The translations under genes were made by a program, and so were the position numbers. A model generated the notes under the pieces. That model saw only the letters and a list, made by a program, of their open reading frames with translations. It was not told the DNA's origin and searched no databases. A DNA stretch of 30,741 nt, taken from positions 1 through 30,741 of the IMG/VR virus record IMGVR_UViG_3300037189_028533; one strand, given 5' to 3'. This document shows positions 1-24,865 of this stretch, in pieces; the first letter of the stretch is position 1; the number at the start of each line of letters is the position of its first letter. The DNA comes from a virus.

Positions 1-1476
1 TACGCTCTGCGAAGCCGGCGAAAACGCCGCACCGAGTCCCTGAAGTATAATAACGTGGTAGTACAAGTTAGCACCGAAGATATTATCGACAACACCGTAT
101 CTGGTCAAGAGACCAACACGAGGCGCGAAATCATTCGGACCAATCGTACGTTGAACCATGACCGGAATGTACGGGCAGTAGATAATACCGGTATCATAGA
201 ATTCTGGACCTTTATACCCAAGAAGAGCATATTCAATGCCCTCGGAGTAAGCTCCTCTGCTAGTAGCGCCGAGGGACCCGTCACTATAGCCATTGTTTCC
301 ATATTTACCAGTGTTCTGAACTTCCGTACGAGTGTCACGATAAACGTTGAAACGTCCACCAAGATTACCTACCTTAGCAATACCAACAGGCTGAGTATTC
401 ACGTTGCCTTGGACCGGAACCCATTGGAATTCCGGAAGCATTTCGAGAATAGCGGCAACACGGGGAGTACAAACAATAAAGTTTGCAGCACCACGACGGT
501 TACGCACAGCAATGCGGTTTGCTTCGATAATAAGTCTTTGATAGAAATCTCTGTTTCGTTCAACTAACCAGCGACCATCGGCAGAAGCAGGATGCCAGAC
601 CGAGTACCCAACCCCATAAGAGGTGTTAAGACAGGTCTGAATCATCCGAACAATCATCTCACGGTCGATTTCAGCTTGGATCTCATACGCCATAGCGTTA
701 GTGATCTCAGCATCAACATCGATACCGTTCATGTTCTTAAGATCCTGCTCAAGTTCGACGGACCAGCGAGCGCCAAGACGTCTCGTACCAGCTTCCACGG
801 CAGTCTTCTCAAAAGAGATATCAACTTGAGGGATGTTATTGTTGATTTCCCAGTTCTGAAGGATTTCGGCCACGCCTTGATCCTGAGCTGCGAAGTTCCA
901 ATAATCACCACCCGAGAGTCTCGAGGAGGAAGTACCGGTAAAGCGAGTATCGATGAATTGATAGCCAAGTTCTTTTGTATCTGCAGTAGGCAATGTGTTA
1001 TGAGTGCCGGGAGAAGTTCTCCCGCCATCAATCTGTCCGGTCCCAAGACCTTCAGTATTGTACTTATAACGCAACGCGAACGCGAGACCAACAGGACCGC
1101 TCATCGGCTGAACGCCAACGATTTCGTTACTTATTAATTCAGGGAAAGTACGACGAATCATCGGAATAAGAATCTTCGGAAGACGAGCATCGTTGGTTGC
1201 ATAACCATCATTGCTCCGGATAGTTCCGGGAGGGTTATAAACCGTACCACCAGCAGCTGATCCGAAGGCCCCTTGACCACTGTAGTTGTTCTCCATAAGG
1301 AGACCACCTTCGGGGTCACGGCACCAGCCTTCTTGGTTTTCAAGCATGATAGCAGTATTAATACGAGTGCGCTCATCTTCAATAGGAGCGATAGACTTCG
1401 AGGTGTAGTTAAGCACTGGTGCCCACTTCTCAAGAAGGGTTTTCGCTCTGTTTTGATCGATATAGTTTCTATTCAT
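1..1476 (-). CDS. 23: Major capsid protein, T4 gp23-like (3' end cut by window edge)
   Basis: I translated the minus strand by hand from the ATG at 1476 and it stays open to base 1, giving 492 residues without a stop; T4 gp23 has 521, so little of the C-terminus is missing. Residues 99-139 carry the gp23 signature (LPKILIPMIRRTFPEL, then SNEIVGVQPMSGPVGLAFALR). The N-terminus (residues 11-24, KTLLEKWAPVLNY) also fits gp23, whose first ~65 residues are removed by the prohead protease in T4. The protein forms the hexamers of the head. It is the last gene of the order 21-67-22-23, as in T4. An in-frame GTG lies 18 bases upstream of the ATG, but the ATG suits the family better. The plus-strand open frames here are shadows. 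Identity is nearly certain; only the C-terminus is unseen. Confidence 0.97.
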   Translation of the reverse strand, partial: MNRNYIDQNRAKTLLEKWAPVLNYTSKSIAPIEDERTRINTAIMLENQEGWCRDPEGGLLMENNYSGQGAFGSAAGGTVYNPPGTIRSNDGYATNDARLPKILIPMIRRTFPELISNEIVGVQPMSGPVGLAFALRYKYNTEGLGTGQIDGGRTSPGTHNTLPTADTKELGYQFIDTRFTGTSSSRLSGGDYWNFAAQDQGVAEILQNWEINNNIPQVDISFEKTAVEAGTRRLGARWSVELEQDLKNMNGIDVDAEITNAMAYEIQAEIDREMIVRMIQTCLNTSYGVGYSVWHPASADGRWLVERNRDFYQRLIIEANRIAVRNRRGAANFIVCTPRVAAILEMLPEFQWVPVQGNVNTQPVGIAKVGNLGGRFNVYRDTRTEVQNTGKYGNNGYSDGSLGATSRGAYSEGIEYALLGYKGPEFYDTGIIYCPYIPVMVQRTIGPNDFAPRVGLLTRYGVVDNIFGANLYYHVIILQGLGAAFSPASQSV

Positions 1477-1536: not shown

Positions 1537-1544
1537 TATTTATT
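1537..1544 (-). promoter_or_regulatory. Candidate T4-type late promoter for gp23
   Basis: The minus strand reads AATAAATA, one base from the T4 late consensus TATAAATA. It overlaps the stop codon of the scaffold gene and lies about 60 bases before the gp23 ATG. T4 spacing rules put the start of transcription near 1531, giving a leader of about 55 bases that contains the hairpin at 1502-1516. The first-position mismatch and the AT-rich setting keep this tentative. Confidence 0.4.
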
Positions 1545-2469
1545 AAATGTATTTACCTAACTGCTCAAGATATCCATCAGTAGCGGCTCGTTGGGGCCGG
1601 GCTTGAGGAACTCTATTTATTTGTTCATTGATAATGAGGTCATCTATAGAGGGAGACTTAACTTTGACCTTTCTGGTCTCCATTGCTTCTTCTCTAAGGT
1701 TTTGAAGTTGCTCATTTTCTTTCTTATCATACAGCTTAAGAGTGTATTCAAAGTTTTCATTAATAAATTCAGGAGATCTGGTACCGAGAACCTTCTTGAG
1801 GTATTCCTTTTTCTTAGTAGGAAGGCCAGCGCTCTTTTGTTCGAGCAGAAGATTAGCAGCAACAACCCGGTAATGCTCGGTGAGATTCTCAATTTGCTTA
1901 TTTTTCTCATCCAACCGCTCTTGAAGAGCGTCGATTTGCTGTTTACCGTCAATAACCGCGGTGCGAACAGATTCATCAAGAAGAGAACTTCCAATAGATA
2001 ATTGGTTTCTCAATCCAGCAAGCACAGAGTAAGCTTTCTTGTTCTTAACTGCTTCGTTAATCGATTGCTGAGGAATTAATTCCTCCAAGTAAACCTCCAA
2101 ATAATCGCTAATGTGCTTAACAACAGACTCCTTAAATGTACGAGCATCCCCATGAAGAGCATTGTTATACTTTCTGATAACTTTCTTGAGCTTGAGGGCG
2201 TTATTCCTATCAATAGCTTCAACAACCTTAACAAGCTTTCTCGTCTTATCACGATCAATAGCTTCTAAAACTTGAACTAGCTTATCGGAATATTCTTGGT
2301 CTTGTAATTCTAAAGCAGCTTGCTCTCTAAGAACGGCTCTCTTCTCGACTTCTTCATTAAAAGCGGATTCGATAATTTGAAGAGATTTTTCATTGAGAAG
2401 CCCGTTTGTAGCTTCTCTAAGAACAGTTGCTATATTACTGTCGGAGGTTGTTTTCTGTTGCTTACTCAT
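1543..2469 (-). CDS. 22: Prohead core scaffolding protein, T4 gp22-like
   Basis: This 308-residue, highly charged and mostly helical protein sits directly between the core protein/protease pair and gp23, the position of gp22 in T4. Residues ~55-110 carry repeated charged helices (for example VQVLEAIDRDKTRKLVKVVE followed by a similar AIDRNNALKLKK stretch), and residues ~180-215 look like a coiled coil. T4 gp22 (269 residues) forms the inner core around which gp23 assembles and is then digested by gp21. A possible cleavage context of the L-x-E type is seen in YLEELIP. The start overlaps the stop of the preceding gene by four bases (ATGA), so translation is probably coupled. The call rests on position, composition and overall resemblance. 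Confidence 0.85.
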   Translation of the reverse strand: MSKQQKTTSDSNIATVLREATNGLLNEKSLQIIESAFNEEVEKRAVLREQAALELQDQEYSDKLVQVLEAIDRDKTRKLVKVVEAIDRNNALKLKKVIRKYNNALHGDARTFKESVVKHISDYLEVYLEELIPQQSINEAVKNKKAYSVLAGLRNQLSIGSSLLDESVRTAVIDGKQQIDALQERLDEKNKQIENLTEHYRVVAANLLLEQKSAGLPTKKKEYLKKVLGTRSPEFINENFEYTLKLYDKKENEQLQNLREEAMETRKVKVKSPSIDDLIINEQINRVPQARPQRAATDGYLEQLGKYI

Positions 2470-2649: not shown

Positions 2650-3327
2650 TTAGTAGATATTTCTTAAAAATTTGATAATTTGTTCCGTTAAATATTGCTC
2701 TTTTTCTTTAGAAGGCAGGTTTACAAAAGATTTTTCAAATGTTTCGTAGTTTTCTTGAAAATGCCCATCGTCTTTCAATACCCATTCTTTAGATTCAAGA
2801 ATGCCATTTACAAATGCTTCGCTAAAAGAAGGGTCAGCAACGCAGTCAATAGCGACGAGTCTCATATTTTGGACTTCATTATAGGAAGTCTTTTCAGTGA
2901 GTTGACCAAGAGCACGAGAAGACATACCAACCGTTACTCCATCATTGACGAGAGAATGAACAATTTTGCCGCAGGGAGTAGTTAAGACTTTAGACCTACC
3001 TACGAATACGTATCTATCACCTTCCTTTTCTTCTTTAAGGAATTCGACTAAATGACATGCTCTTTCGAGGTCTACATCAGCAGATGAAGGGTGGTTAAGC
3101 TCGCCCATGGCTCTCTTTTTACCAATCATTTCCTTGGTATATCTATCCACCTCGGATCGCATTTCCTCAATAGGATAGCGTCTCTTGTTTCTATTTACTG
3201 CTTCGGCTAGCATGTAAGGTCCTTGAATATATAGAGACCTTGGCTGATTGCGATCCTTCTCTTCAAAGATATATTCGAATTCATCAAGAGATGAAGCAGC
3301 CTCGTCAGTAATTAGTCGGAATCCCAT
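2650..3327 (-). CDS. 21: Prohead maturation protease, T4 gp21-like
   Basis: This 225-residue serine protease of the T4 gp21 family has the two catalytic motifs: GELNHP at residues 75-80 (catalytic His79) and GMSSRAL at 134-140 (catalytic Ser136/137). The preceding SLYIQGPYMLAEAVNRNKR stretch (31-49) is typical of the N-terminal strand region. The fold is related to herpesvirus assemblins. The enzyme digests the core proteins (gp22, gp67) and trims gp23 and other head proteins before DNA packaging. It is followed at once by gp67- and gp22-like genes, as expected. The start codon has no visible Shine-Dalgarno sequence but lies five bases after a perfect TATAAATA, an unusual arrangement described separately. 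Confidence 0.95.
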   Translation of the reverse strand: MGFRLITDEAASSLDEFEYIFEEKDRNQPRSLYIQGPYMLAEAVNRNKRRYPIEEMRSEVDRYTKEMIGKKRAMGELNHPSSADVDLERACHLVEFLKEEKEGDRYVFVGRSKVLTTPCGKIVHSLVNDGVTVGMSSRALGQLTEKTSYNEVQNMRLVAIDCVADPSFSEAFVNGILESKEWVLKDDGHFQENYETFEKSFVNLPSKEKEQYLTEQIIKFLRNIY

Positions 3328-3392: not shown

Positions 3393-4241
3393 TTATCCGT
3401 ATAAATCTTTTTGAATTTCTCTCTCAACATCTCGCGCATTTATTTTATCGAGCTTATCAAATTGCTCGAGAGAGAGTGGCGCAAAAGCCCATGTAATGCC
3501 TTTAGCTGCTTTTAATACATCCTCTCTACTCACTTCTGAACGCTCTTCTCGCGCGCCTTTGATATGAGATTCGACTGCTTTATATGATACGCCGAAGATT
3601 CCTCCATTATCATGCCAGGCGTTTAAAGATAATGTTACAGCGATTATTTTATCTTTTAACGTTTGAGCATTTTGTAATTTTTTATATGAGGATAAAATAG
3701 AGACCCACGGCGTTCCCCACATTTCGCTGCCTTTATCTTTTGAATAAAATTTGTCTAAATCATAGTTATCATCCGTTATTCCGTAATTATGTGTTATAAA
3801 ATCGAAGACTTTTTTAACATTATCTTTGCTCTGGTATAATATTCTGGACTCTAATACTCCGAGCATCCATTCCCGTATCCAATCAAATAGAGAATTAATT
3901 TCATAAACTGAGAAATCTAATAGCTGTTCAGCATTTTCTTTTTTTTCTACCGGGGCCATATTTATTTCTTTTTTTAATAAATGGATTTTAAATTCCAGTT
4001 GATGAAATCTATACAGTTTGCTAAAAGCAATGCCGCTTTTAGAGGTCATATGCTTGATTAATTTTTCAGCGTGAATTTTATCTTGAAAATCGAACCCGCC
4101 GCCGCGACTGTTATACGTAAAAGGCTTACTCTCTTTTGCTAATCTTTCAACCTCAAGTCTCCAAGCTTTAATATCGCTTATATCATTTTCGCTTGATTCG
4201 TTTATTACCCGGTAGAGATAAAAATTATTAAACGTTAACAT
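3393..4241 (-). CDS. Unknown protein, paralogue B of a pair flanking the gp4-like gene
   Basis: I do not recognise the family. This 282-residue protein is clearly homologous along its length to the product of 4679-5398. Shared blocks in the same order include the N-terminus (M-x-TF-x-x-F, then an ES-rich stretch), a block KLYRFHQLEFKIHLLK near residue 93, EWMLGVLESRI near 140, LKDKIIAVTLSLNAWHDNGG at about 205-224 and FAPLSLEQFDKLDKI near the end. This copy has an extra ~20-residue charged insert after the NAWHDNGGIFG motif. No signal peptide or membrane segment is visible. Its place between gp4-like and gp21 genes suggests a virion or head-assembly role; that is inference. It ends 65 bases before the protease gene. 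Confidence 0.85.
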   Translation of the reverse strand: MLTFNNFYLYRVINESSENDISDIKAWRLEVERLAKESKPFTYNSRGGGFDFQDKIHAEKLIKHMTSKSGIAFSKLYRFHQLEFKIHLLKKEINMAPVEKKENAEQLLDFSVYEINSLFDWIREWMLGVLESRILYQSKDNVKKVFDFITHNYGITDDNYDLDKFYSKDKGSEMWGTPWVSILSSYKKLQNAQTLKDKIIAVTLSLNAWHDNGGIFGVSYKAVESHIKGAREERSEVSREDVLKAAKGITWAFAPLSLEQFDKLDKINARDVEREIQKDLYG

Positions 4242-4242
4242 T

Positions 4243-4677
4243 TTATATATTTAGTTCTTTTTCTGTTAGAATAACAAACTCGGCTCCGTGTCTTTTAGAC
4301 CATTCCTCTGCGGCTGCCCATTTTGCTTGATTTTGATTGAACATAGCTTGCTCGTAAAGTAGATTATTTTTATTACGATATCGCTTTGGATCAGGCGGGC
4401 TTGTATGTTTCTTGGGCTTTATTTCTATTAAATATCTTTTTATCTTATCCCCTTCTTTGAGAATAATAAAGTTATCTACAAAATAGCGAGAAGGTTTATT
4501 ATTATTAGGATTTACATATGGTATAATAATATTTTCGCTTCCCCATTTTACTACATTAGGATTTTCATCGCACCATCTAAAAAACTTTAACTCATACGAA
4601 GACCTATAAACAGCAGCCGTTCCCTCGAACTTGAGACTATTTTTAGGCTTAAAAACACCTTGTTTATAAGGCTTCAT
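4243..4677 (-). CDS. 4: Head completion protein, T4 gp4-like (nuclease fold)
   Basis: This 144-residue protein matches T4 gp4 (also called gp50/65) in length and pattern: YRSSYELKFFRWCDENPNV at residues 24-42, then WGSENIIIPY, RYFVDNF at 64-70, YLIEIKPKK at 82-90 and NQAKWAAAEEW further on. Glu29, Asp68 and Glu85-x-Lys87 have the spacing of a PD-(D/E)xK-type nuclease centre. In T4 the protein is needed to finish packaged heads so that the neck can attach; a DNA-end trimming role has been suggested but I treat it as inference. A good ribosome site (AAGGA) sits in the end of the upstream gene. The gene is bracketed by two paralogues of unknown function. Confidence 0.85.
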   Translation of the reverse strand: MKPYKQGVFKPKNSLKFEGTAAVYRSSYELKFFRWCDENPNVVKWGSENIIIPYVNPNNNKPSRYFVDNFIILKEGDKIKRYLIEIKPKKHTSPPDPKRYRNKNNLLYEQAMFNQNQAKWAAAEEWSKRHGAEFVILTEKELNI

Positions 4678-4678
4678 T

Positions 4679-5398
4679 TCAATTTAATTCCTTACGAATT
4701 TCCTGCTCTACTTTCCGCGGATCAATTTTATCTAGTTTATCAAACTGAGCCATTGAAAGAGGTGCGAACGACCATACATCCTCCCCGCCGAATTTTTCCG
4801 CATCTTGAGATGTTATGCCGAAGATGCCACCGTTATCGTGCCACGCATTTAATGCCAATGTAATTGCGATTACCTTATCTTTTAAAGACGATGCTGACTT
4901 TAATCTTATATAGGACTCCACTATAGACTCCCAGGGAATACCCATTTCTTTGCCTCCAATACCTGACCCGACACGTCGTTCTCTCTCAGGTATTGTAGCC
5001 TTTTGTTGGAGCTCATTCCACCGATTCAAATATCTCGGATTTTTATCCGTATCATAATATATCCTAGTCTCAAGTATCCCTAACATCCACTCTTTTAGCC
5101 ATTCGTATAAATTATTAAGTTCGTATGTAGTAAAGTCTATCAAATTACCGGTATTACCATTCTGCTTGAGTAAATGAAGTTTATATTCTAAAAAATGAAA
5201 TCTATATAACTTACCGTAAGCAATATCAGATTGAGACATTACATGTTCTCGTAATGCGCCACTCTCATCTCCCATACCTGATAACACCTTAACTTTATCT
5301 CGCCATTTTTTAATAAAGTTTAAAGCTGAATCATTCGCCTCGCTTTCTGAAACCAGCTGTAAAGCATATTGTTTAAAAAATTCTTTGAATGTTTTCAT
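4679..5398 (-). CDS. Unknown protein, paralogue A of a pair flanking the gp4-like gene
   Basis: This 239-residue protein is the partner of the gene at 3393-4241 and I cannot assign a family. Conserved blocks are KLYRFHFLEYKLHLLK near residue 65, EWLKEWMLGILETRIYY near 105, SLKDKVIAITLALNAWHDNG at about 175-195 and the C-terminal FAPLSMAQFDKLDKIDPRKV. It is shorter than its paralogue, mainly in two loops. The N-terminus MKTFKEFFKQY resembles the short amphipathic starts seen on many T4-like structural proteins. It starts three bases after the stop of the gp13-like gene, with GGATAAAAT before the ATG, so it belongs to the late head operon. A structural or packaged-protein role is plausible but unproven. 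Confidence 0.85.
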   Translation of the reverse strand: MKTFKEFFKQYALQLVSESEANDSALNFIKKWRDKVKVLSGMGDESGALREHVMSQSDIAYGKLYRFHFLEYKLHLLKQNGNTGNLIDFTTYELNNLYEWLKEWMLGILETRIYYDTDKNPRYLNRWNELQQKATIPERERRVGSGIGGKEMGIPWESIVESYIRLKSASSLKDKVIAITLALNAWHDNGGIFGITSQDAEKFGGEDVWSFAPLSMAQFDKLDKIDPRKVEQEIRKELN

Positions 5399-5401
5399 AT
5401 T

Positions 5402-6580
5402 TTATCCGACAAAGAACATCGCCGGGTCAGAATCGCCCATTCCTGGTGTTGTTTTTTCGTAAAGCATTGTTTCAAGTCTTTCCTTCTCCGCAGTGCCTTG
5501 AGTCATTAAATCTGTAGCATTAAAGGCCTGCCCGCCAAACAGAGTAAGATTGCCATATTTCCCTCTTACTTGAGCGAGAGTAATCTTACAAAGTGCGAGA
5601 GTGTATTGATATACCCAATGCTCTTTAATAACATCTCTGATAGGTCTTTCCACATAACACGATAAGACTCCATAAAATCTTGAGTTCGGAGTAGGCTCAG
5701 GATACATTTGTAGCATCTGAGTGCGGTCATTAAAGGTGTAGGTCCGACGAGTAGCGAGAAGTTTCTCTCTCATCTCGAGCCATTCTTTTAGAGTATACCA
5801 AGATACCAAGTCAAATCCATAGTTGCCCATAGCATATGAGAAATATGTTTGCTGCGCTAAGGTTTGCTCTATGGTAAACAGAGTGTTAATACCGGTAGAA
5901 GACCCTTCTTCAAAATCACTTACGGCTATTACTTTGCGATAATCTAATAAGTCGTAATCAAACATATTATTTACCTTATAACTATCGTCTCTTGTTTTGG
6001 TCTCGCCTCGAAGAGTTGGCTCATTGATGAACGATTCCATAAACAATGAACTTACCGCTATAGCGCTCAATGTATTGCTTGCTCGAAATGACGTTAAGAT
6101 GTCTGTGTATGTAGACTTATCAAATATTTGATTTTGGAATATCCCATTTTCAAATACAGAACTTAAATTTGCGAGAGATGTAAACCTGCTACTCGCTATT
6201 GCAGAAGTAGCAATATACATTGTCTTTGGCTCCGTAATGTAAAACGCTGCTTCAGGAGATTGTATTGTGTGATCGGCCTTTTGCTCAAGAGTTAAGGTCG
6301 GATTAGATAGAGTAAAGAGATAATCTAATCGTAAACCTTTATTCTTCTCGTAAAGATTAGAATCAAAAACTAAATATTCTGAAGTGTATCCTGCAAATTT
6401 AGTAAACATCTCTATTGCTATAGAGATGTTTTCAAATATCTGATCTTGGTGTAGCTCTACCTGTATTAGAGGTGCTCCCAGGGCTCTAACTACCCGATCC
6501 CCTAATCTATTGAAGGTGTTAATCCTACTGTTTAGATTGGTCGTCTGGAACGCGGAAATCGGGGTAATATTACAGGCCAT
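5402..6580 (-). CDS. Probable neck (head-tail connector) protein, T4 gp13-like
   Basis: The 392-residue product has the arrangement of gp13-type neck proteins. An N-terminal VELHQDQIFENISIAIEMFT stretch (residues ~41-60) resembles the 'V-E-L-x-x-x-Q-I-x-x-x-I-x-x-A' start seen in connector adaptors. The C-terminal half has EWLEMREKL, then a short strand region, YVERPIRDVIKEHWVYQYTLALCKITLAQVRGKYGNL and an NATDLMTQGTAEKERLETML helix. In T4, gp13 and gp14 close the filled head and dock the tail. This protein is longer than T4 gp13 (309 residues), mostly from a middle region. It lies directly downstream of the portal gene. The family call rests on remembered pattern similarity and should be treated as probable; another connector family is possible. 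Confidence 0.65.
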   Translation of the reverse strand: MACNITPISAFQTTNLNSRINTFNRLGDRVVRALGAPLIQVELHQDQIFENISIAIEMFTKFAGYTSEYLVFDSNLYEKNKGLRLDYLFTLSNPTLTLEQKADHTIQSPEAAFYITEPKTMYIATSAIASSRFTSLANLSSVFENGIFQNQIFDKSTYTDILTSFRASNTLSAIAVSSLFMESFINEPTLRGETKTRDDSYKVNNMFDYDLLDYRKVIAVSDFEEGSSTGINTLFTIEQTLAQQTYFSYAMGNYGFDLVSWYTLKEWLEMREKLLATRRTYTFNDRTQMLQMYPEPTPNSRFYGVLSCYVERPIRDVIKEHWVYQYTLALCKITLAQVRGKYGNLTLFGGQAFNATDLMTQGTAEKERLETMLYEKTTPGMGDSDPAMFFVG

Positions 6581-6605: not shown

Positions 6606-8420
6606 CTATGCTGATACTTCGGTGGCTGGAGGAGCGCCTTCAACGGGAGCCTCGGCCGTCTCGGCTGGAACTGGCTCTTCTAGACCAGTAGCGGCAGGTC
6701 CGCCGCTAAATGCTGGAGGCGCTCCTGCACCAAGATCCATTGCCCCTCCCATGTCGCCGCCCATATCCCCGCCAGCTGCCACTGCAGTTGCTTCAGCGCT
6801 CGCAGCGACCTGTTCACGCCAGTTCGGTCCCATATTAGTAATTTGAGTAAGTTCCCATTCAAGTTCCTTATCCACCCGAAGATACTGCCTATTTGCCAAT
6901 ATAGCATGGTCATCCCATCCAAGATATTTCTTCTGACAGTATGTTTTTGATATAAGATCGTTCGTCGAGAGATTAGTATAATTATCAAGTTTAAGCCCTA
7001 ATTTTTGAGCCTCTCTCAATTCATAATAGTTGGAAGGAGGGTTAAAATCGAAAGCTAAATCTGTTTCTTTAATTTCTAAACTTTCCCAAAGTTTAGTCAT
7101 TTTGAGATGAGTAATAAATCCTTGCTTTAAGCTAGTCGCGAAATGTTGCTGCATTCTTACGATAAATTTCGCAAACTTAAGTTCCTCACGAAGCATTGAT
7201 TTTGGATCTTGTAGCGCCGACTCTTCACTCAATCTATTGACTGGCACTTTTAAAGCCTTATAAAGCTTCTTAACAAAATACATTAAGTCCGTTAATTCGC
7301 CAAGATTAGCACCGCCTTGAAGCTGATCTACTGTAGTTCCTGCTTGACCGCTTCTTTTAGCAAACCAGAACGCATCAAGCATTGATTGAGGGTTAAACTT
7401 ATTAACAATATCCCCTTGGCTAGCATCAAATGTTTTCGTGGACCAGTACTGCGACATTAACTTGCGAAGGTATTGCTCGGCCTTAGGAGGAGCCATATTA
7501 CCTACATCAACATTGAATACGAGCCTCTCTGGCGCTCTAACCATTCTGTAAATAAGAATAGCGTCCTCAACTAGAGATAACTGTCTATATGCGCGACGAG
7601 CATTTTCAATAAATGGCAGTCTAACATTTTTAGTTTCGTTCCATATACCGCTATCAAAATAAACTACCTGGTTTTCATTGAGAGGTATATAATCAAAGTT
7701 ATCCTCGGCTTTATTAGGCTTGTTAGGATCGAGAATCGGCTTTCTATATAGATATCCTTTAATTAAAAGGTTCTGTATATTGTTATAGATCGGGTCTATT
7801 AACTCCGTAGGAACTCTCACCACACCTAATACACCCTTATCGGCGTGTTTAGAATGTATAATATGCTCGAAATAAACCTCGCCTTCAATAAGAATATCTC
7901 TAAAATATCCCCACCCTTTTCTTTCGAGTTCGAAGTAGTTTATATATTTTTTATACTCTTCAATAAGTTGCTGCTTATCATCAAACGAAAGTTCTTCTTC
8001 GAAGGCTTTATCAAAACTTATTTTTACTATATCTCCGTTATCATCCTTATTGATAATCTCGTCGCATATTTCATCAAGAGCATCGGCAATTTCGGCGAAC
8101 GCGGCCATTACCCTATAGTCATTTATTCTGGCATGCTTGTTCTTCTGAACGTTAGCATACATCATCTCGCTGAACTTACCAGCAGCATCGACCATCCCGA
8201 CGCCCTCGTTATTAAATTCGTTAGACTGAGATATAGAATATTTGGCAAGAACTTCTGGTCTTCTTACACCTTTATTTTCAAAATGCTTAAACTTAGGGTT
8301 AGATTCGTGGGCTGTATCTATTGCCTCAAATCCCGAGTAGGGCAGTTTCGAAGCCACATAATTCATTAGGTTGCGACCAAATGTTGACTGCTTGCCCTCT
8401 CCTGTAAAGTTTTTTGCCAT
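6606..8420 (-). CDS. 20: Portal vertex protein, T4 gp20-like
   Basis: This 604-residue protein is a T4-type portal. Recognisable blocks include EIADALDEICDEIINKD near residue 110, GEVYFEHIIH (~175), VVYFDSGIWNETK, ARRAYRQLSLVEDAILIYRMVRAPERLVFNVDVGNM (~270-305), LPQGGANLG-like DQLQGGANLGELTDLMYF (~360) and KALKVPVNRLSEES. The portal forms the dodecameric DNA entry ring and starts head assembly. It is longer than T4 gp20 (524 residues) because of a C-terminal tail of roughly 65 residues that is almost only Ala, Gly, Pro, Met and Glu (GGDMGGDMGGAMDLGAGAPP region). A perfect late-promoter motif lies about 45 bases before the ATG. Confidence 0.95.
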   Translation of the reverse strand: MAKNFTGEGKQSTFGRNLMNYVASKLPYSGFEAIDTAHESNPKFKHFENKGVRRPEVLAKYSISQSNEFNNEGVGMVDAAGKFSEMMYANVQKNKHARINDYRVMAAFAEIADALDEICDEIINKDDNGDIVKISFDKAFEEELSFDDKQQLIEEYKKYINYFELERKGWGYFRDILIEGEVYFEHIIHSKHADKGVLGVVRVPTELIDPIYNNIQNLLIKGYLYRKPILDPNKPNKAEDNFDYIPLNENQVVYFDSGIWNETKNVRLPFIENARRAYRQLSLVEDAILIYRMVRAPERLVFNVDVGNMAPPKAEQYLRKLMSQYWSTKTFDASQGDIVNKFNPQSMLDAFWFAKRSGQAGTTVDQLQGGANLGELTDLMYFVKKLYKALKVPVNRLSEESALQDPKSMLREELKFAKFIVRMQQHFATSLKQGFITHLKMTKLWESLEIKETDLAFDFNPPSNYYELREAQKLGLKLDNYTNLSTNDLISKTYCQKKYLGWDDHAILANRQYLRVDKELEWELTQITNMGPNWREQVAASAEATAVAAGGDMGGDMGGAMDLGAGAPPAFSGGPAATGLEEPVPAETAEAPVEGAPPATEVSA

Positions 8421-8463
8421 CTATATCTTGTATTTAATAAAAATAATGTAAATTACAATGCTC

Positions 8464-8471
8464 TATTTATA
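8464..8471 (-). promoter_or_regulatory. T4-type late promoter for the portal gene
   Basis: The minus strand carries a perfect TATAAATA that overlaps the stop codon of the upstream gp15-like gene. T4 geometry places the transcription start near 8458, leaving a leader of about 38 bases before the gp20 ATG at 8420. This is the most conventional late promoter in the window and implies use of a gp55/gp33-type late sigma and sliding-clamp activation; those factors are not in view. Confidence 0.6.
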
Positions 8472-11246: not shown

Positions 11247-11594
11247 TCAAATATCATATTGAATCTTAACCTTATTATCGAACATTTTATTCTTTTTAAT
11301 TCTATTTAAAACCTTTAATTTATATATGAGCATCTTATTGCCCTTCGATAAGGTTTCAAGTGTGTAATCAAACTCGATTCCGTCTTCGAGAATATTTACA
11401 GCAAACGGATATGGGAGTTCATACACTTTACTCTCCCTATTATTTCCTCCAGAAATTGTAAACGTAGTATAGAAGTCTTTTATATTGAAAATAACTAATC
11501 TACCACTACGCACTACTTTATTGTTAATGATAAACTTTACATTACGTTGAAGTAAATGTGAAATCTTCTTTTCTATTGCTTCCCTGTTTATCAT
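11247..11594 (-). CDS. Unknown small beta-rich protein
   Basis: I do not recognise this 115-residue protein. It begins with a short helix (IEKKISHLLQRN), followed by alternating hydrophobic strands (VKFIINNKVVRSGRLVIFNI, then FYTTFTISG) and a lysine-rich C-terminus, which suggests a small beta-barrel or sandwich. Its start overlaps the stop of the gene at 11591 in ATGA, so the two are translationally coupled. The helicase gene follows after 29 bases. A role linked to DNA or RNA handling is possible from its neighbours only. Confidence 0.8.
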   Translation of the reverse strand: MINREAIEKKISHLLQRNVKFIINNKVVRSGRLVIFNIKDFYTTFTISGGNNRESKVYELPYPFAVNILEDGIEFDYTLETLSKGNKMLIYKLKVLNRIKKNKMFDNKVKIQYDI

Positions 11595-11968
11595 GTGTTC
11601 ATATAAAGGACTTTTTGTGCTGGAGACATTACGAAAAATTTCTCGTTAAATACTTTCCAGAACTCGTCATTCGCAGGATATTTATTAAGCAGTTCGCAAT
11701 CATCCATGGATACTGCTCTAAATTCTTGCATTAAAATATCCCACGTCATTACGATATTTTTACCCGCTGGGCTGAATTTTAATCCCTGCTTGGGAGGCGT
11801 AAAGTTTAAAGTAACCCTGCCATTGACGCTCTGTAATATAGCATCGCTATTGGTACAGAGCATAGTTCGGTAGGGCGCTCGAGTCGGGTCATTGACCCTT
11901 CTCCTAAATCTTATCTCGGCAACATTTTCGAGTAAAAGATTCTGTAATTGCGCCCTACCGACTTTCAT
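11591..11968 (-). CDS. Conserved T4-like phage small protein, possibly SH3-barrel (DUF2693/WYL_2-type)
   Basis: This 125-residue protein resembles a small conserved protein found in many marine T4-like phages: VAEIRFRRRVNDPTRAPYRT then MLCTNSDAIL (residues ~16-45), GRVTLNFTPPKQGLKF (~50-65), NIVMTWDILMQEFRAVSMDD (~71-90) and a C-terminal NDEFWKVFNEKFF. The strand pattern and the R-x-M-L-C-T block recall the Sm-like SH3-barrel family DUF2693, but that assignment is from memory and is weak. Its biochemical role is unknown. It starts one base after the stop of the cochaperonin-like gene and overlaps the next gene by four bases. Confidence 0.8.
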   Translation of the reverse strand: MKVGRAQLQNLLLENVAEIRFRRRVNDPTRAPYRTMLCTNSDAILQSVNGRVTLNFTPPKQGLKFSPAGKNIVMTWDILMQEFRAVSMDDCELLNKYPANDEFWKVFNEKFFVMSPAQKVLYMNT

Positions 11969-11969
11969 A

Positions 11970-12371
11970 TTACTCAGACTCAGACTCTACACACACTCCG
12001 AAAATTCTCGATTCATTGAGAAAGACTCCGTGTTTGATTTTGCCTTTACCGTCAATCTCGAGGTTCTCAATAGCAACTCCGTAGTTATTTGGGAATAAAA
12101 CTATTTCATCTTCTTTACTCCATTTAGCATCGACCCCAGCAATTATTACCCGGGCCTTTCTCCACGCCTGAGTGCGGACATGGAGAGGCACAAAAATACC
12201 ATTTCGTAAAATAGATTCACCATCTTCTGACATGTCAATAAATTCGCAGAATAAAACGTCTCCATGAAGTCGTGTTAATTTAAAATTATCAACATCCATG
12301 TCGACGACGGCATCGGCGGAAAGTTGTATTAGCCCTCGTTCGGGTAGAAGTTTATCAATATCGGCTCGCAT
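11970..12371 (-). CDS. GroES-like cochaperonin, probable functional analogue of T4 gp31
   Basis: The 133-residue protein has the GroES order of elements. A strand with the start of the mobile-loop region (GESILRNGIFVP, residues ~50-61) is followed by a barrel strand ARVIIAGVDAKWSKEDEIVL (73-92), LFPNNYGVAIENLEIDGKGK and the closing strand FLNESRIFGV (~117-126), which parallels the 'L-R-E-S-D-I-L-A-V' end of GroES. In T4, gp31 replaces GroES on host GroEL because gp23 is too large for the normal cage, and a gp23 gene lies in the same window. The match is structural-pattern based, so the assignment is probable. Its upstream 30 bases are AT-only-like sequence with no clear ribosome site. Confidence 0.6.
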   Translation of the reverse strand: MRADIDKLLPERGLIQLSADAVVDMDVDNFKLTRLHGDVLFCEFIDMSEDGESILRNGIFVPLHVRTQAWRKARVIIAGVDAKWSKEDEIVLFPNNYGVAIENLEIDGKGKIKHGVFLNESRIFGVCVESESE

Positions 12372-12401
12372 ATATTATATATAATAAATAAAAACTTTAT
12401 T

Positions 12402-12767
12402 TCAACTGTCGAAGAGGTCTTTGTAGAGTTTTAACTCTCTTACACTTATCTCTTTATTTTTTGCTATGATATCTAGATTGTCTTCTTTAATCTCTTCTTT
12501 AGTTGCTTTATTCTTTTTAATATATTGAATTTTTTTAAAGCGGATTTTAGGAAAGAGATAATAATACCAATTATATTGCTGCTCTTTTGTATTGAATAGA
12601 CTGCCATACCGGTTAGAGGTATTATTAATAACCTCTAACATTTCATCCGAATACATCGAAACCCACCTATTAATCATATACGGTGAAAATTGTGTCTCAT
12701 TATCTAAATTAATATCGATTTTTTTCTTAGAGAAAAATAGCGAATTGATAATATTAAAAATTGTCAT
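12402..12767 (-). CDS. Probable clamp-loader small subunit, T4 gp62-like
   Basis: This 121-residue protein has FSPYMINRWVSMYSDEML at residues 28-45, a mid-block EQQYNWYYYLFPKIRFKKIQ at about 62-81 and a C-terminal EISVRELKLYKDLF. That pattern (SPYMINR, then a Y-x-x-L/F-P-K-x-R-F helix) is what I associate with the short gp62 versions of marine T4-like phages, which pair with gp44 to load the sliding clamp gp45. T4 gp62 is longer (187 residues). gp44 and gp45 are not in this window, so context does not confirm it. Its ATG overlaps the stop of the small zinc-ribbon-like gene in ATGA. Confidence 0.55.
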   Translation of the reverse strand: MTIFNIINSLFFSKKKIDINLDNETQFSPYMINRWVSMYSDEMLEVINNTSNRYGSLFNTKEQQYNWYYYLFPKIRFKKIQYIKKNKATKEEIKEDNLDIIAKNKEISVRELKLYKDLFDS

Positions 12768-12928
12768 TCTATAAATTTATTTGGATAACTAATATATTTT
12801 TCTTTGCTGCAAAAGCGGCATCTCAATAATGAGTATCCTCTATTACTAGAGCGCTTACGCCAATTATGGTAGCCGAAAGAGCACCATATTTTAGAAATCC
12901 ACCTTCGAAGACGCAATAAAAATCTCAT
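12764..12928 (-). CDS. 54-residue zinc-ribbon-like protein
   Basis: I found this small gene by reading the minus strand of an apparent gap. It runs from an ATG at 12928, inside the end of the DUF366 gene, to a TGA that overlaps the clamp-loader ATG (ATGA). Residues 16-23 read CSFGYHNW and residues 37-40 CRFC, giving a Cys/His set (Cys16, His21, Cys37, Cys40) like small phage zinc ribbons of the C-x-F-G-H-x-W ... R-x-C-x-x-C type. The N-terminus is very basic (MRFLLRLRRW). Tight overlap on both sides and the sensible Cys/His pattern argue that it is real. It fills an otherwise empty 123-base gap. Function unknown; nucleic-acid or protein binding is inference. Confidence 0.75.
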   Translation of the reverse strand: MRFLLRLRRWISKIWCSFGYHNWRKRSSNRGYSLLRCRFCSKEKYISYPNKFIE

Positions 12929-13481
12929 CGTTTATAGAGTAAAAAATTTGAATGACATCATTCATAAATTTAGTGCAATCTTCATCACTAAGATTTGTTG
13001 AATATGCGAACGGAGGCGCTTTTCTTCCAGCCGATACATTGATACCCGTGTGGCCAATAGCGACATTATCTTTCGCATAGGTTATAGAAACACTACATTT
13101 ACCCTTATCGCGAAGTTGATTATCGCTGCCGGTAAAATCGTCTATAACCATTAAATCATCCCCCCTCACTTCGATAGGCTTCTTTAAATAGTTAAGAGAC
13201 AGAACATTAGCGATTTGAGTATTAAGCAATCGCTGAAACGCTACCGCGCCCTTCGGACAAAGGTTAGGGATTTCCCAGCAAAAGTTAATAGCATCATCGC
13301 TAACAATTGTATCATTCTGCAAAACATCCTCCTGGTCAATCATATTGTCAATAGAAACATCCATAGGCGCTCTAAATGCGACAATATTACCAATAGGTAG
13401 GGTATGGTTTCGGAAGTATTTATATGCAAATCTTTTATGGATTAACGCACCGTCGTAGAGTTTTATATCTTTAATAATCAT
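12891..13481 (-). CDS. DUF366 family protein
   Basis: This 196-residue protein matches the pattern of DUF366 proteins: YDGALIHKRFAYKYF (residues 9-23), GNIVAFRAPMDVSIDNMIDQ (32-51), EDVLQNDTIVSDDAINFCWE (52-71), RGDDLMVI (~106-113), a KCSVSI strand and HTGINVSAG (~144-152). DUF366 occurs in archaea, bacteria and phages; I know of no firm biochemical role. Its start overlaps the stop of the GDP-sugar epimerase gene (ATGA), which couples it to the end of the glycan operon, while its end overlaps the zinc-ribbon-like gene. It may therefore belong to either block. Confidence 0.75.
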   Translation of the reverse strand: MIIKDIKLYDGALIHKRFAYKYFRNHTLPIGNIVAFRAPMDVSIDNMIDQEDVLQNDTIVSDDAINFCWEIPNLCPKGAVAFQRLLNTQIANVLSLNYLKKPIEVRGDDLMVIDDFTGSDNQLRDKGKCSVSITYAKDNVAIGHTGINVSAGRKAPPFAYSTNLSDEDCTKFMNDVIQIFYSINDEIFIASSKVDF

Positions 13482-14476
13482 AGTTGTTCTTTAATCCAAC
13501 TATAAGTTATACCTATACCTTTTTCAAGCGAAAAGTTCGGGGACCATCCTAATTTTTCTTTTATTAGCTTGTTACAAGAGTTGCGACCAGGTACTCCTCG
13601 AGGGGCGTCGAGTTTATATTTTCTTGTAAGTTTTTTACCCTCTACTTTTTCAGCTAGGGCAACCAATTCATTTATAGTTACCATTTCATCCGAACCAATA
13701 TTTACAGGGCCAGTAAACTCAGAATTCATTAGACGCCTAATACCCTCGATACATTCATCAATATATAAAAATGACCTTGTTTGGTTACCATCGCCCCAAA
13801 TTTCAATGTCCCCATTTGATTGAATAACCTTTCTACAAATTGCCGCGGGAGCTTTTTCTTTTCCCCCATCATAAGTTCCTAATGGACCATATATGTTATG
13901 GAACCTTGCAATCCGAACATTGAGCCCGTAATTCCTCGCATACGCCAGATATAGTCGTTCACTAAAGAGCTTTTCCCATCCATACTCTGAATCCGGATTT
14001 GCGGGGTATGCCGAGGATTCTTCGCAGTTAGGATTAGAGGGATCGAGTTGATTATGTTCCGGATACATACAAGCACTTGAGGAGTAAAACACTTTCTTAA
14101 CCCCTTTTAATGCTGCTTGATTTGCTACGTTTAAATTTATAGTTGCAGAATTATGCATTACGTTGGCATCGTTCTCGCCGGAGAAAATATAACCTGCTCC
14201 CCCCATGTCTGCAGCAAGTTGATAAACTTCGTCAAAAGAATTCTCCGGATCGTTAATATGTGCCTGATTAGGGCCGACTATAACTCGGCTAACATTGGAC
14301 ACTTTACGTAAATCTGCTTCATCGCCCCATACGCAATCATCTGTTATCGATTCTTGATATTGAGGCTTTTTAATATCGACTGCGCGAACCCAATAGCCTT
14401 CTCTTTTTAATCTATTTACAAGATGATTGCCAATGAACCCACCGGCCCCTAAAACTAGCGCTGTCTTCTGCTTCAT
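13478..14476 (-). CDS. NAD-dependent sugar epimerase, GDP-mannose 3,5-epimerase-like
   Basis: The 332-residue short-chain dehydrogenase has GAGGFIG (10-16) for NAD binding, SSSACMYPE (132-140), YGWEK (165-169, catalytic Tyr165/Lys169), RFHNIYGPLGTYDGGKEKAP (191-210) and WGDGNQTRSFLYIDECIEG (227-245). These match plant GDP-mannose 3,5-epimerase (GME) block for block, including the positions of its second catalytic pair (Cys136 and Lys208 here). GME converts GDP-mannose to GDP-L-galactose or GDP-L-gulose. A ~20-residue insert (about 58-80) is unlike the plant enzyme. I chose the ATG at 14476; an upstream in-frame GTG adds 12 residues that do not look like the family. It is the last sugar enzyme of the glycan island. 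Confidence 0.85.
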   Translation of the reverse strand: MKQKTALVLGAGGFIGNHLVNRLKREGYWVRAVDIKKPQYQESITDDCVWGDEADLRKVSNVSRVIVGPNQAHINDPENSFDEVYQLAADMGGAGYIFSGENDANVMHNSATINLNVANQAALKGVKKVFYSSSACMYPEHNQLDPSNPNCEESSAYPANPDSEYGWEKLFSERLYLAYARNYGLNVRIARFHNIYGPLGTYDGGKEKAPAAICRKVIQSNGDIEIWGDGNQTRSFLYIDECIEGIRRLMNSEFTGPVNIGSDEMVTINELVALAEKVEGKKLTRKYKLDAPRGVPGRNSCNKLIKEKLGWSPNFSLEKGIGITYSWIKEQL

Positions 14477-14512
14477 AAATAAATATACACGATATAAATG
14501 ATAAATCAACAC

Positions 14513-15232
14513 TTATCTACCATGGTGTAACAGCTGTCCCCACGACTCTTTTCTATAATCATTACCATACTGAGTAATATCGTATATGGGCGCCAAATTA
14601 TTCTGTTTACAAAGCAAGCTAAGTACCGATTGATCGTGTCTATGATCTACAAACATTGGATAATTAGGTTTGCCCATTACGTTTTCTTTATCGGTAAGAA
14701 TTCTTTCGTCTTCGCAGAAAGTTAGCCATTTTTTTACTATATTAACAGTGCTAGGAGTTTTACGAAAAAATATATAACTAGCCCCTAATTGGCCTGGTAT
14801 AGGCTCGCTCCACATAGTATCATTATCACTATCAGTCAAAATTAGAGCATCTCTCTTACATACCTCTCGTTCATCACTCATACCATCATTTATTATAAAG
14901 GTAATAATATGTCTGTTAAATGCTAAAGCTAATACCTCGCTCAAATCATTAATTTGACTTATACAAGAATCACAATACATTAAAATATCATTTTCCTCCA
15001 TAGTAGATAATATTCTATCAATAAGATAAGGCTTCCATAGCCAATAACCCGCCCCTCTTTTTTGCGAAAAAATGTTAATATGCTTTTGATAATAGCCCTC
15101 CTTTATAGATTTTTCATCTAAAAGAAAATAAGAATCAAAATTATTAAAATGTAAAAAACTTTTAGCACACATATCACGGAGATTGCCGTGACAAGTGTGC
15201 GAGGTACCATAGCTCATAAAATATTTTTTCAT
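14513..15232 (-). CDS. Glycosyltransferase-like protein (GT-A type)
   Basis: This 239-residue protein carries GAGYWLWKPYLIDRIL (residues ~62-77), NDILMYCDSC (~82-91) in the place of a DxD-type metal site, a GQLGASYIFFRKTPSTVNIV stretch (~145-164), and HRHDQSVLSLLCKQNNL near the end. The order 'G-F/A-G-Y-W-L-W-K-P' then 'I-L-x-Y-x-D-x-G/C' then 'H-D-Q-S' is known from a family of uncharacterised bacterial and viral glycosyltransferases. I moved the start to the ATG at 15232, since a longer frame to 15319 only reads back into the FkbM gene. Donor and acceptor sugars are unknown. It is part of the coupled glycan operon. Confidence 0.75.
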   Translation of the reverse strand: MKKYFMSYGTSHTCHGNLRDMCAKSFLHFNNFDSYFLLDEKSIKEGYYQKHINIFSQKRGAGYWLWKPYLIDRILSTMEENDILMYCDSCISQINDLSEVLALAFNRHIITFIINDGMSDEREVCKRDALILTDSDNDTMWSEPIPGQLGASYIFFRKTPSTVNIVKKWLTFCEDERILTDKENVMGKPNYPMFVDHRHDQSVLSLLCKQNNLAPIYDITQYGNDYRKESWGQLLHHGR

Positions 15233-15270
15233 ACTAAAGATAATATATATTTTTTTTATGGCAACTTTTT

Positions 15271-15888
15271 TTAATTCGATCTCATATAAAACGCATCTCC
15301 CCAAGTACCTCCAGCCCAATCAATCTCCTTGCATTCAAACCCTTGCGATCTTAAAAATTCATCAAGCTCATCATAAAGTACACCTGTTTCATATAGTTCT
15401 TGATTGTTAACTTCAATTATTATATATTTTATATTTTTGAGCGTATTAATACCTCCCCTCAGTACTCTATCTTCGAATCCCTGTACATCGATATTTAAAA
15501 AATTATATGTACTATCTAATTGATAACTATCAAGAGTTTTGACCTGAACTTCAATCTCCTCTTCAAATGTTATATGCGGATATTGTATAATATGAACCTT
15601 TGGTTTTAGTAGAGAATTAGACATTTTAGACGCGCAGTCTACATGCATCGTCATAACACTCTCAGTATCTCCTAATGCAACGTTATGTGGGTAAACCTTG
15701 GAGTATTTAGCAGCGGCTTTAAGAAGTTGCTCGTATGACTCCGGGGTAGGTTCAAATATTTGAATACAACATTCTTTATTTATTTCTTTATATAATTCTA
15801 TCTCTGTACCAACATGTCCCCCTACATGTATAATATTTTCAAGCTTTATATTATATTTTTCAATAATGCTATGTAAATTGAAAATCAT
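15271..15888 (-). CDS. FkbM-family methyltransferase
   Basis: This 205-residue SAM-dependent methyltransferase has the FkbM layout: motif I HVGGHVGTE (~22-30), IQIFEPTPESYEQL (~43-56), a VALGD strand, and NIDVQGFEDRVLRGG (~132-146), which matches the family's 'D-x-E/Q-G-x-E-x-x-V-L-x-G'. FkbM enzymes O-methylate sugars or polyketides. The start is an ATG at 15888 whose TGA overlap with the upstream gene is ATGA; the upstream TTG extension is unlikely. It lies between another methyltransferase and a glycosyltransferase, so methylation of a glycan is the natural reading. Confidence 0.85.
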   Translation of the reverse strand: MIFNLHSIIEKYNIKLENIIHVGGHVGTEIELYKEINKECCIQIFEPTPESYEQLLKAAAKYSKVYPHNVALGDTESVMTMHVDCASKMSNSLLKPKVHIIQYPHITFEEEIEVQVKTLDSYQLDSTYNFLNIDVQGFEDRVLRGGINTLKNIKYIIIEVNNQELYETGVLYDELDEFLRSQGFECKEIDWAGGTWGDAFYMRSN

Positions 15889-16424
15889 TTTTTTGCGCAA
15901 ATATTTAGGCTCATGAGTCTACCTGTTTCTTTTTCAAGATGTGGTAAATATGATTGACTAAAATCATCTATGCTTGAGTGCTCTGTGTCTCTCCAGTCAT
16001 AACGTTCTACAAAAGAAAACCCTACATCTAAGAGGTCTTTTTTAAGATGTTCAAAATCCCAACACCAATAATGAAAATTTTCATTATAGTCCTGCCCGCC
16101 GTACATCAGGCCTCGTATAGCATTTAAATTTCCGGTCTCAATATAATATTCCACTATTGCTTTAAAATCTGGCACTGCAACTCTGAGAATGCCGCCGTGC
16201 GCGAGAATTTCATACCATCTTTTAAGAGCATCTTTATAATCCCAACGAGAAAAATGCTCAAGAACATGAGATGCATATATAGTACTTACAGAGGAGAGTT
16301 TATAGCTTCTGAGATATTTAATGTTGTCGACAGCATCGACGCCTGGAATGTACCTAACATCAATATTAGTATAGCCATCAATGTGCTTATTGCCACAGCC
16401 TAAATGTAATTTTATGTTATTCAT
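15885..16424 (-). CDS. Small SAM-dependent methyltransferase (class I)
   Basis: The 179-residue protein begins MNNIKLHLGCGNKHIDGYTN, a standard SAM-binding motif I with the acidic residue of the second strand following (NIDVR). Later blocks ASHVLEHFSRWDYKDALKRW and HGGILRVAVPDF are typical of Methyltransf_11-type proteins found in polysaccharide clusters ('predicted SAM-dependent methyltransferase'). I placed the start at the ATG at 16424. A longer frame to 16598 has a hydrophobic, out-of-family N-terminus and only reads back into the fucosyltransferase gene. It overlaps that gene by 8 bases and the FkbM gene by 4. The target is unknown. Confidence 0.8.
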   Translation of the reverse strand: MNNIKLHLGCGNKHIDGYTNIDVRYIPGVDAVDNIKYLRSYKLSSVSTIYASHVLEHFSRWDYKDALKRWYEILAHGGILRVAVPDFKAIVEYYIETGNLNAIRGLMYGGQDYNENFHYWCWDFEHLKKDLLDVGFSFVERYDWRDTEHSSIDDFSQSYLPHLEKETGRLMSLNICAKK

Positions 16425-17259
16425 TATTAAGAAAATGTTGATTAGGAATAGACATAGCAATATCTTGTGGCGACCAAACTGTTGTATTTTTATGATAATT
16501 AAACCAATACATTGGAGATATAATTGTTGGAGAATTTCTATTAAGCCATGCTCCCCACCATGAAAAACTAGATGCGGCAGTGATACAATGGTGGGCATTC
16601 TTCATAATACTTAAATCTAGAAGTTTATCTTCCACATCAAAGGGCGATACCTTAATATCAAACCCTTCATTAATTAATATATTAGCCCTATCGCTATTCT
16701 TATTATCCGATATGAATGCAATGCCAACATCCTCTTTGCTTAAGTTGTTTATTTCTAAAATTTTATCAACAGCTCTCTTAAAATACCAATCATTAGGAAT
16801 TGGAAACCCGTCTCCCGCTAAATAATCCCCCTCTCTGCTGTGTGCGCAAATAACCGCTTTTTTATTAAAGCTTTTTAAGAAGTTAATAGCTCTCTCATCA
16901 ATAGTTTTATCTTTAAAGGTAAAAAAATTGAGAATATCGTCTCTGCAATCAATAAAATATTTATCTGTTTGAAAATATCCTTCTAGCAGAGTATTATCAG
17001 CGACATTAAAAATTTCTGGATTAAACGTTTGTTCTGCACAGCTAGAATCCATAAAACAATGATGACAAACATTTGAAGTTTGAGTTTTAGGTGGTAGATT
17101 AAAAATTTCTATTCCATTCCCGCTCGGTGTACTATCATTACTAGCTCCGCCCCAGTCTGAATTAAACAATTCAAACCCCGTCTTTTTGCTTACAGCATAC
17201 GATACAGCCCACTGAAACATATTATTTCCAAAATTCGACATCCATGTATTACTAATCAT
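16417..17259 (-). CDS. GT11 alpha-1,2-fucosyltransferase-like protein
   Basis: The 280-residue protein has the GT11 hallmarks: NFGNNMFQWAVSYAVSKKTG (9-28; family 'G-N-Q-M-F-Q-Y-A'), GYFQTDKYF (94-102), the donor-binding motif HSREGDYL (140-147) and AASSFSWWGAWLNR (228-241). GT11 enzymes transfer fucose from GDP-fucose to the 2-position of galactose or similar. The donor motif is normally HxRRxDY; here the second Arg is Glu143, so donor or activity may be altered. A CHHC-containing loop (65-68) is an odd insert. It starts 16 bases after the C-methyltransferase stop. Confidence 0.85.
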   Translation of the reverse strand: MISNTWMSNFGNNMFQWAVSYAVSKKTGFELFNSDWGGASNDSTPSGNGIEIFNLPPKTQTSNVCHHCFMDSSCAEQTFNPEIFNVADNTLLEGYFQTDKYFIDCRDDILNFFTFKDKTIDERAINFLKSFNKKAVICAHSREGDYLAGDGFPIPNDWYFKRAVDKILEINNLSKEDVGIAFISDNKNSDRANILINEGFDIKVSPFDVEDKLLDLSIMKNAHHCITAASSFSWWGAWLNRNSPTIISPMYWFNYHKNTTVWSPQDIAMSIPNQHFLNNE

Positions 17260-17275
17260 AAATATATTTTAAAGA

Positions 17276-20203: not shown

Positions 20204-20205
20204 AA

Positions 20206-20817: not shown

Positions 20818-20895
20818 AAATTATTATAATATTGCGGCCCAGGCCTGTCTCTTCAACTACGTAGTTTGAATTTCATTTGCCTGTTATTAAAATTT
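20818..20895 (-). other. Spacer with a coupled but truncated start (possible gene remnant) and an inverted repeat
   Basis: In this operon most genes overlap, yet this gap is empty. An ATG (20897-20899) overlaps the stop of the upstream gene in ATGA and encodes only MKILITGK before a TGA at 20873-20875. MKILITG is the usual start of an NAD-binding sugar epimerase. It may be the stub of a deleted epimerase gene. The gap also contains the palindrome AACTACGTAGTT (20855-20866) with flanking near-complementary bases, and a GGCC-rich hairpin (about 20835-20845). The remnant reading is inference from eight codons. Confidence 0.35.
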
Positions 20896-22907: not shown

Positions 22908-22929
22908 TTTTTCGGTCCCCGATTATTTA

Positions 22930-24856: not shown

Positions 24857-24865
24857 ATTTTTTAT

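What the first reader, a model, noticed from the sequence alone, without database searches (positions are those of the whole stretch)
3393..5398. Paralogous unknown proteins bracketing the gp4-like gene
The genes at 3393-4241 and 4679-5398 share long blocks in the same order (LNAWHDNGG, KLYRFH, APLS-x-x-QFDKLDKI), so they are an old duplication with the gp4-like nuclease-fold gene in between. I cannot match the family, and T4 has nothing similar here. A packaged or head-completion function is plausible from place alone. The one with the insert may have taken a new role.
Basis: partly seen in the sequence, partly recalled or inferred. Interest (0 to 1): 0.7.

Follow-up and report, generated by a model that had tools for sequence, protein, structure and literature searches.

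The report
Duplicated capsid-cargo proteins flanking gp4
Two sister genes on either side of a head-closure gene in a marine T4-like phage most likely make proteins that are loaded into the virus head with a short removable address tag, nearly the same tag phage T4 uses, and injected into the host with the DNA.

Summary
Genes A (3393-4241, 282 aa) and B (4679-5398, 239 aa) are paralogues (41% identity, E 8e-61) on either side of a gp4-like head-closure gene. No Pfam, PHROG, NCBIfam, PDB or fold match was found. Only one distant relative turned up in IMG/VR, beside a terminase in another phage.

The useful signal is at the N-termini. B begins MKTFKEF, identical to the first seven residues of the T4 internal protein IPI capsid-targeting sequence. 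A begins MLTFNNF. Both keep the aromatic residues 4 and 7 that T4 needs for targeting, followed by a gp21-type site (VINE|S, LVSE|S).

In 80 portal relatives the core order gp20-gp14-gp4-gp21 is constant and A/B are missing, even from a relative 94-100% identical in its core proteins. The two gaps beside gp4 are accessory slots. In other phages they hold unrelated genes that carry the same leader or a second one (..LI[WFY]E). Gene A sits in one slot between 12-bp direct repeats that are single in the empty site.

Best reading: A and B are T4 internal-protein-like cargo, targeted into the prohead, trimmed by gp21 and injected. The host target is unknown; anti-defence is a guess by analogy. They are not conserved head-completion parts. 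Packaging itself is untested.

The parts
4679..5398 (-). Gene B, 239 aa: predicted internal capsid cargo protein
   Evidence: ORF; paralogue of A; absent from relatives
5345..5398 (-). B leader MKTFKEFFKQYALQLVSE (18 aa), predicted capsid-targeting sequence cut after E18
   Evidence: first 7 residues identical to T4 IPI; E18 invariant in A/B/L002 alignment
3393..4241 (-). Gene A, 282 aa: paralogous predicted capsid cargo protein
   Evidence: ORF
4197..4241 (-). A leader MLTFNNFYLYRVINE (15 aa), predicted capsid-targeting sequence cut after E15
   Evidence: aromatics at 4 and 7, INE site
4242..4253 (-). Direct repeat TAAATATATAAA, copy before A (overlaps gp4 stop)
   Evidence: single copy in the empty site of L038
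3378..3389 (-). Direct repeat TAAATATATAAA, copy after A
4243..4677 (-). gp4-like head-closure gene between the two cargo slots
   Evidence: phrog_218 1.3e-46
5402..6580 (-). gp14-like neck/adaptor gene, upstream border of the gp14/gp4 slot
   Evidence: phrog_211 3.4e-22
2650..3327 (-). gp21-like prohead protease, predicted to cut the leaders
   Evidence: phrog_207 1e-52, Peptidase_S77 9.6e-29
1543..2469 (-). gp22-like scaffold candidate, rich in [IL]xE sites
   Evidence: position between gp21 and major capsid gene; sequence; no family hit
1..1476 (-). Major capsid protein (gp23-like, cut by window end); site GGLLME|NN at residue 62
   Evidence: open ORF and sequence
6606..8420 (-). Portal gp20
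   Evidence: Portal_T4 1.9e-96
8464..8471 (-). TATAAATA, possible T4-type late promoter ahead of gp20-gp14-B-gp4-A
   Evidence: count in the window is not above chance, so weak

Best explanation
A and B are diverged copies of an internal capsid cargo protein that works like the T4 internal proteins. They are made late with the head genes. An N-terminal capsid-targeting leader (15 or 18 residues, aromatic at positions 4 and 7) recruits them to the scaffold core of the prohead. The gp21 protease encoded next door removes the leader after [IV]xE, leaving mature helical bodies of about 31 and 26 kDa in the head, and they enter the host with the DNA. Most likely they then act on a first-line host defence or another early host target, each copy possibly on its own variant. 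Shown: the paralogy, leader sequence, cleavage-site motif, accessory slot position and gain/loss. Inferred: late synthesis, packaging, cleavage, injection. Guessed by analogy: an anti-defence role.
For: B starts MKTFKEF, identical to residues 1-7 of T4 IPI as read from NC_000866; IPII/III start MKTYQEFIAE. In T4 the leader is 10-19 aa, residues 4 and 7 direct targeting, 8 and 10 processing (PMC9026906); A and B have F4 and F7 and an [IV]xE site at 15 and 18. That Glu is one of few invariant residues near the N-terminus of A, B and L002. A scan of IMG/VR for MKTFKEF gave 118 proteins in 63 body families: 23/63 have [ILVM]8-x-E10 against 0.9% background, 42/63 have [ILVM]xE at 10-20 against 10% expected. 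Slot families carry the T4-rule leader in 3/7 cases against 1/142 elsewhere, p 2.5e-4. The major capsid protein has LLME|N near the T4 gp23 cleavage position (the T4 position is from general knowledge). A/B are lacking in all 80 portal relatives apart from the contig of the same virus, as expected of cargo. T4 IPI, IPII and IPIII are injected and inhibit GmrSD restriction enzymes (PMC12373910). A without its leader gave a more confident fold than full-length B (pLDDT 70, pTM 0.71), which is only consistent.
Against: No virion proteomics and no cleavage data. A's leader is only partly like T4 (MLTFNNF). B's site is VxE, a weaker match than [IL]xE. T4 IPs are basic (PMC9026906) and smaller, while mature A and B are near neutral (pI about 6.7 and 6.1). 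No family or fold match gives a host target. The pair is known from one assembly.
Confidence: 0.72

Rival explanations
1. A and B are core or scaffold components that help build the prohead (like T4 gp67/gp68, or the morphogenesis role reported for IPIII), enter the head through the same leader, and have no job in the host.
For: Same leader and site logic; neighbours are gp21 and scaffold; T4 IPIII mutants have slower head assembly (PMC9026906). Helical bodies.
Against: Gene-level presence/absence among viruses with nearly identical head proteins suggests they are dispensable for building that head; the slots elsewhere hold unrelated bodies.
Confidence: 0.13
2. A and B are head-completion or neck proteins (for instance replacing T4 gp13) acting with gp4 and gp14 at the portal vertex.
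For: Place between gp14, gp4 and gp21; no gp13 homologue was identified in the window.
Against: Relatives with 95-100% identical gp14, gp4 and gp21 have no such gene. No match to connector families. A removable capsid-targeting leader is not expected of a neck protein added after packaging.
Confidence: 0.04
3. A and B are accessory genes (morons) that merely sit in the late operon and act in the infected cell without being packaged; the leader likeness is chance or a relic.
For: Accessory position with 12-bp repeats around A; L049 carries a different, leaderless, possibly selfish ORF in the same slot.
Against: 7 of 7 identity of B with T4 IPI, two leader classes on unrelated slot bodies, and the strong MKTFKEF to [ILVM]xE link across IMG/VR.
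Confidence: 0.11

Closest known systems
T4 internal proteins IPI, IPII, IPIII with capsid-targeting sequences (Mullaney and Black 1996; reviewed in PMC9026906; GmrSD inhibitors in PMC12373910)
   Same: Short N-terminal leader with aromatics at 4 and 7 and a gp21-type [ILV]xE end; B shares MKTFKEF with IPI; variable cargo in a T4-type phage; more than one per phage
   Different: Bodies unrelated, larger (about 31 and 26 kDa mature against 8-20 kDa), near neutral, helical; genes lie in the head cluster beside gp4, whereas T4 ip genes lie at 65.4-66.4 and 73.6 kb, apart from its head cluster; packaging not shown
T-even ip loci with many exchangeable internal-protein genes behind a conserved leader (Repoila et al. 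1994, as cited in PMC12373910; also PMC3012670)
   Same: Conserved leader, exchangeable bodies, gain and loss between close relatives
   Different: Here two slots border gp4, two leader types are seen, and the same body family is found behind either leader
SPN3US ejection proteins with propeptides (PMC5694885)
   Same: Head proteins with removable propeptides that are ejected into the host
   Different: Mostly much longer propeptides and another protease; no sequence likeness tested here

Membership tests
T4-type internal (capsid-targeted) proteins | N-terminal leader of about 10-19 aa with aromatic residues 4 and 7 | tested here: met
   A MLTFNNF, B MKTFKEF; T4 IPI MKTFKEF read from NC_000866
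T4-type internal (capsid-targeted) proteins | gp21-type cleavage site at the end of the leader | tested here: met
   INE at 15 in A, VSE at 18 in B (motif only, VxE being the weaker form); same site type in the virus's capsid protein LLME
T4-type internal (capsid-targeted) proteins | gp21-like protease and gp23-like capsid in the same virus | tested here: met
   Peptidase_S77 9.6e-29; MCP by sequence and position
T4-type internal (capsid-targeted) proteins | Variable between close relatives | tested here: met
   absent from the portal relatives of other viruses
T4-type internal (capsid-targeted) proteins | Basic mature protein | tested here: not met
   pI 6.7 and 6.1. This is a property of the T4 IPs; no source read here makes it a requirement for targeting, and foreign proteins such as GFP are packaged through the leader (PMC9026906). 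So A/B are filed under capsid-targeted cargo, not under the T4 IP protein families
T4-type internal (capsid-targeted) proteins | Present in virion, cleaved, injected | not testable with these tools
   needs proteomics or an injection assay
Head-completion / neck protein | Conserved in all close relatives with the same head | tested here: not met
   L038, L042, L049 and others lack A and B
Type IV restriction (GmrSD) inhibitor | Binding or inhibition of the enzyme | not testable with these tools
   no fold or sequence likeness found

The most novel reading that the evidence does not exclude
The two gaps beside gp4 in this marine T4-like group are general loading docks for injected cargo genes, and the group uses two interchangeable capsid-targeting leaders: the T4 type (M.TF..[FY]) and an undescribed type (M..[DE]..LI[WFY]E). 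A/B would be a new family of injected anti-defence proteins found through this address code.
Probability: 0.4. Interest if true: 0.68.

Novelty: new member of a known kind. Interest (0 to 1): 0.5.

Why it matters
If right, an orphan gene pair gains a testable mechanism from sequence alone, and the T4 capsid-targeting code extends to uncultured marine T4-like viruses that are only about 30% identical in portal to named phages. Leader plus slot position would then be a handle for finding injected proteins, likely counter-defence factors, among unknown marine phage genes.

Tried and rejected
Family libraries (Pfam, PHROGs, NCBIfam, PADLOC) and PDB by sequence: nothing for A/B (a PADLOC hit of the L002 relative at 0.0017, 13 bits within a 1,657-position profile, is taken as chance). 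AlphaFold of full-length B: pLDDT 52, fold search meaningless. Mature A: pLDDT 70, all helical, no PDB or viral match with E below 0.05 and query TM-scores at most about 0.3. More relatives: motif scans on WHDNGG and on the middle of the protein gave only the same two contigs; two scans of 84,980 genomes gave none. Head-completion idea rejected because of absence in close relatives. T4 late promoter TATAAATA: right places ahead of gp20 and gp21, but the total count is not above chance, so not used as evidence. HTVC008M genes between portal and gp21 do not carry the leaders, so the slot use is not universal in marine T4-like phages.

Full report
Observation. The two ORFs exist as described. A is 282 aa and B is 239 aa; BLASTP aligns them from end to end with 41% identity, E 8e-61. 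The gene between them is a gp4-type head-closure protein with a TnsA-like nuclease fold. Around them lie portal gp20, a gp14-like adaptor, protease gp21, a scaffold candidate and the gp23-like major capsid protein. The window is a 30.7 kb virus record; its portal is about 30% identical to those of cyanophages and pelagiphages, its nearest named relatives.

Relatives of the pair. No annotated phage and no family model matches A or B. IMG/VR holds one contig of the same virus (99.98% identical, ending just after B) and one distant relative, L002/L009, with a single copy beside the terminase gene of another phage. A and B are 47-48% identical in the multiple alignment, and each about 31-32% to L002, so the duplication probably happened after that split. 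The most conserved block is LN[AV]WHDNGGIFG. Two scans of bacterial and archaeal genomes found none.

The slots. Eighty portal relatives were fetched, one of them the contig of the same virus. The order gp15-gp20-gp14-gp4-gp21-scaffold-capsid is conserved, but neither A nor B occurs in any of the others. In L038, with gp14, gp4 and gp21 95-100% identical, the gp14-gp4 gap is 5 bp and the gp4-gp21 gap 51 bp. Most other relatives also have empty slots. Some have other genes there: a 128-aa gene (L039, L041), three small genes (L045), a 117-aa gene (L083, L084), and an ORF that looks to me like a homing endonuclease but has no family hit (L049). L042 keeps an 11-codon 3' scar (MKIAGNRHSVE-stop) of the L041 gene, and L045 keeps a degenerate copy of it in the other slot, after gp4. 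So genes come and go on both sides of gp4, and one family has been on both sides, just as A and B are. DNA homology with L038 stops at the B start codon and resumes in gp4. Gene A is flanked by a 12-bp direct repeat TAAATATATAAA that is single in the empty L038 site.

The leaders. T4 internal proteins carry a 10-19 residue capsid-targeting sequence; residues 4 and 7 matter for targeting, 8 and 10 for processing by gp21 (PMC9026906). From the T4 record, IPI starts MKTFKEFTSTTTPVSTITE and IPII/IPIII start MKTYQEFIAE. B starts MKTFKEFFKQYALQLVSE|SEAND and A starts MLTFNNFYLYRVINE|SSEND. Unrelated slot genes start MKTFKQYYGNQRLIQE|A (L039) and MVTFRQYIMGPINE|S (L045). The rule 'aromatic at 4 and 7 plus [ILVMF]xE at 10-20' holds for 3 of 7 slot families and 1 of 142 others (p 2.5e-4); A and B count as one family here. 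The 1 is L009 MVTFKQYLTE, in the phage that also carries the A/B relative. A second leader..LI[WFY]E or near it, is found on L041, L045 and L009 genes. The pattern for it was written after seeing examples, so its p value (2e-6 when both are counted) is only indicative. The 128-aa family has the T4-type leader in L039 and the second type in L041, and the A/B family has the T4 type here and MNCDSHLIYEKW in L002: the leader was swapped in front of the same body in two families. This is what one expects of exchangeable address tags.

Independent check. Among 63 unrelated bodies, 23 have an aliphatic residue at 8 and Glu at 10, the exact T4 IPIII spacing (0.9% expected), and 42 have [ILVM]xE at 10-20 (10% expected). 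The downstream residues were not used for selection. MKTFKEF is thus a leader coupled to a gp21-type site across many phages; 36 of the 119 loci hold a recognisable T4-type core gene in the stretch at hand, many of them short stretches.

Structure. Full-length B folded poorly (pLDDT 52). A without its leader gave pLDDT 70 and pTM 0.71, nearly all helical, with no convincing match in PDB or viral models. The two jobs differ in more than the leader, so the gain is only consistent with a removable leader.

Mechanism. Shown: paralogy, leaders, sites, accessory slots, gain and loss. Inferred: late synthesis in the head operon (intergenic gaps of 1-3 nt), core targeting, cutting by gp21, injection. 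Guess by analogy: action against host defence, since T4 IPI, IPII and IPIII each inhibit a different GmrSD enzyme (PMC12373910) and IPIII loss narrows host range (PMC9391042). A retained duplicate would fit two variants of a target, but nothing here tests that.

Verdict. A new member of a known kind, the capsid-targeted internal proteins of T4-type phages, in an unexpected place and with a new body family. I found no paper that reports this leader in marine T4-like phages, but only open-licence papers were searched.

Noticed in passing
L041:5862-6248; L045:13082-13713; L009:1114-1854 and 8079-8426: A second N-terminal motif, M..[DE]..L[IM][WFYM]E, on unrelated small proteins in slot or accessory positions; may be a second capsid-targeting leader.
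   Followed up: partly
L042 gp14-gp4 gap; L045 gp4-gp21 gap (about 14505-14883): Scar and degenerate copy of the L039/L041 128-aa cargo gene, showing loss from either slot.
   Followed up: partly
window 13478-25708: Block of about a dozen glycosyltransferase-, methyltransferase- and epimerase-like ORFs on the - strand between structural gene groups; identified by reading only.
   Followed up: no
L009:3060-5766: Terminase large subunit ORF looks interrupted by two intein-like segments (weak PT-HINT match).
   Followed up: no
L007:9287-11377 and 11469-13661: Two neighbouring related tail-fibre-like ORFs, another duplication in the same virus.
   Followed up: no
L049:13010-13990: 326-aa ORF in the gp14/gp4 slot of a very close relative, homing-endonuclease-like by eye, no family hit.
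   Followed up: partly
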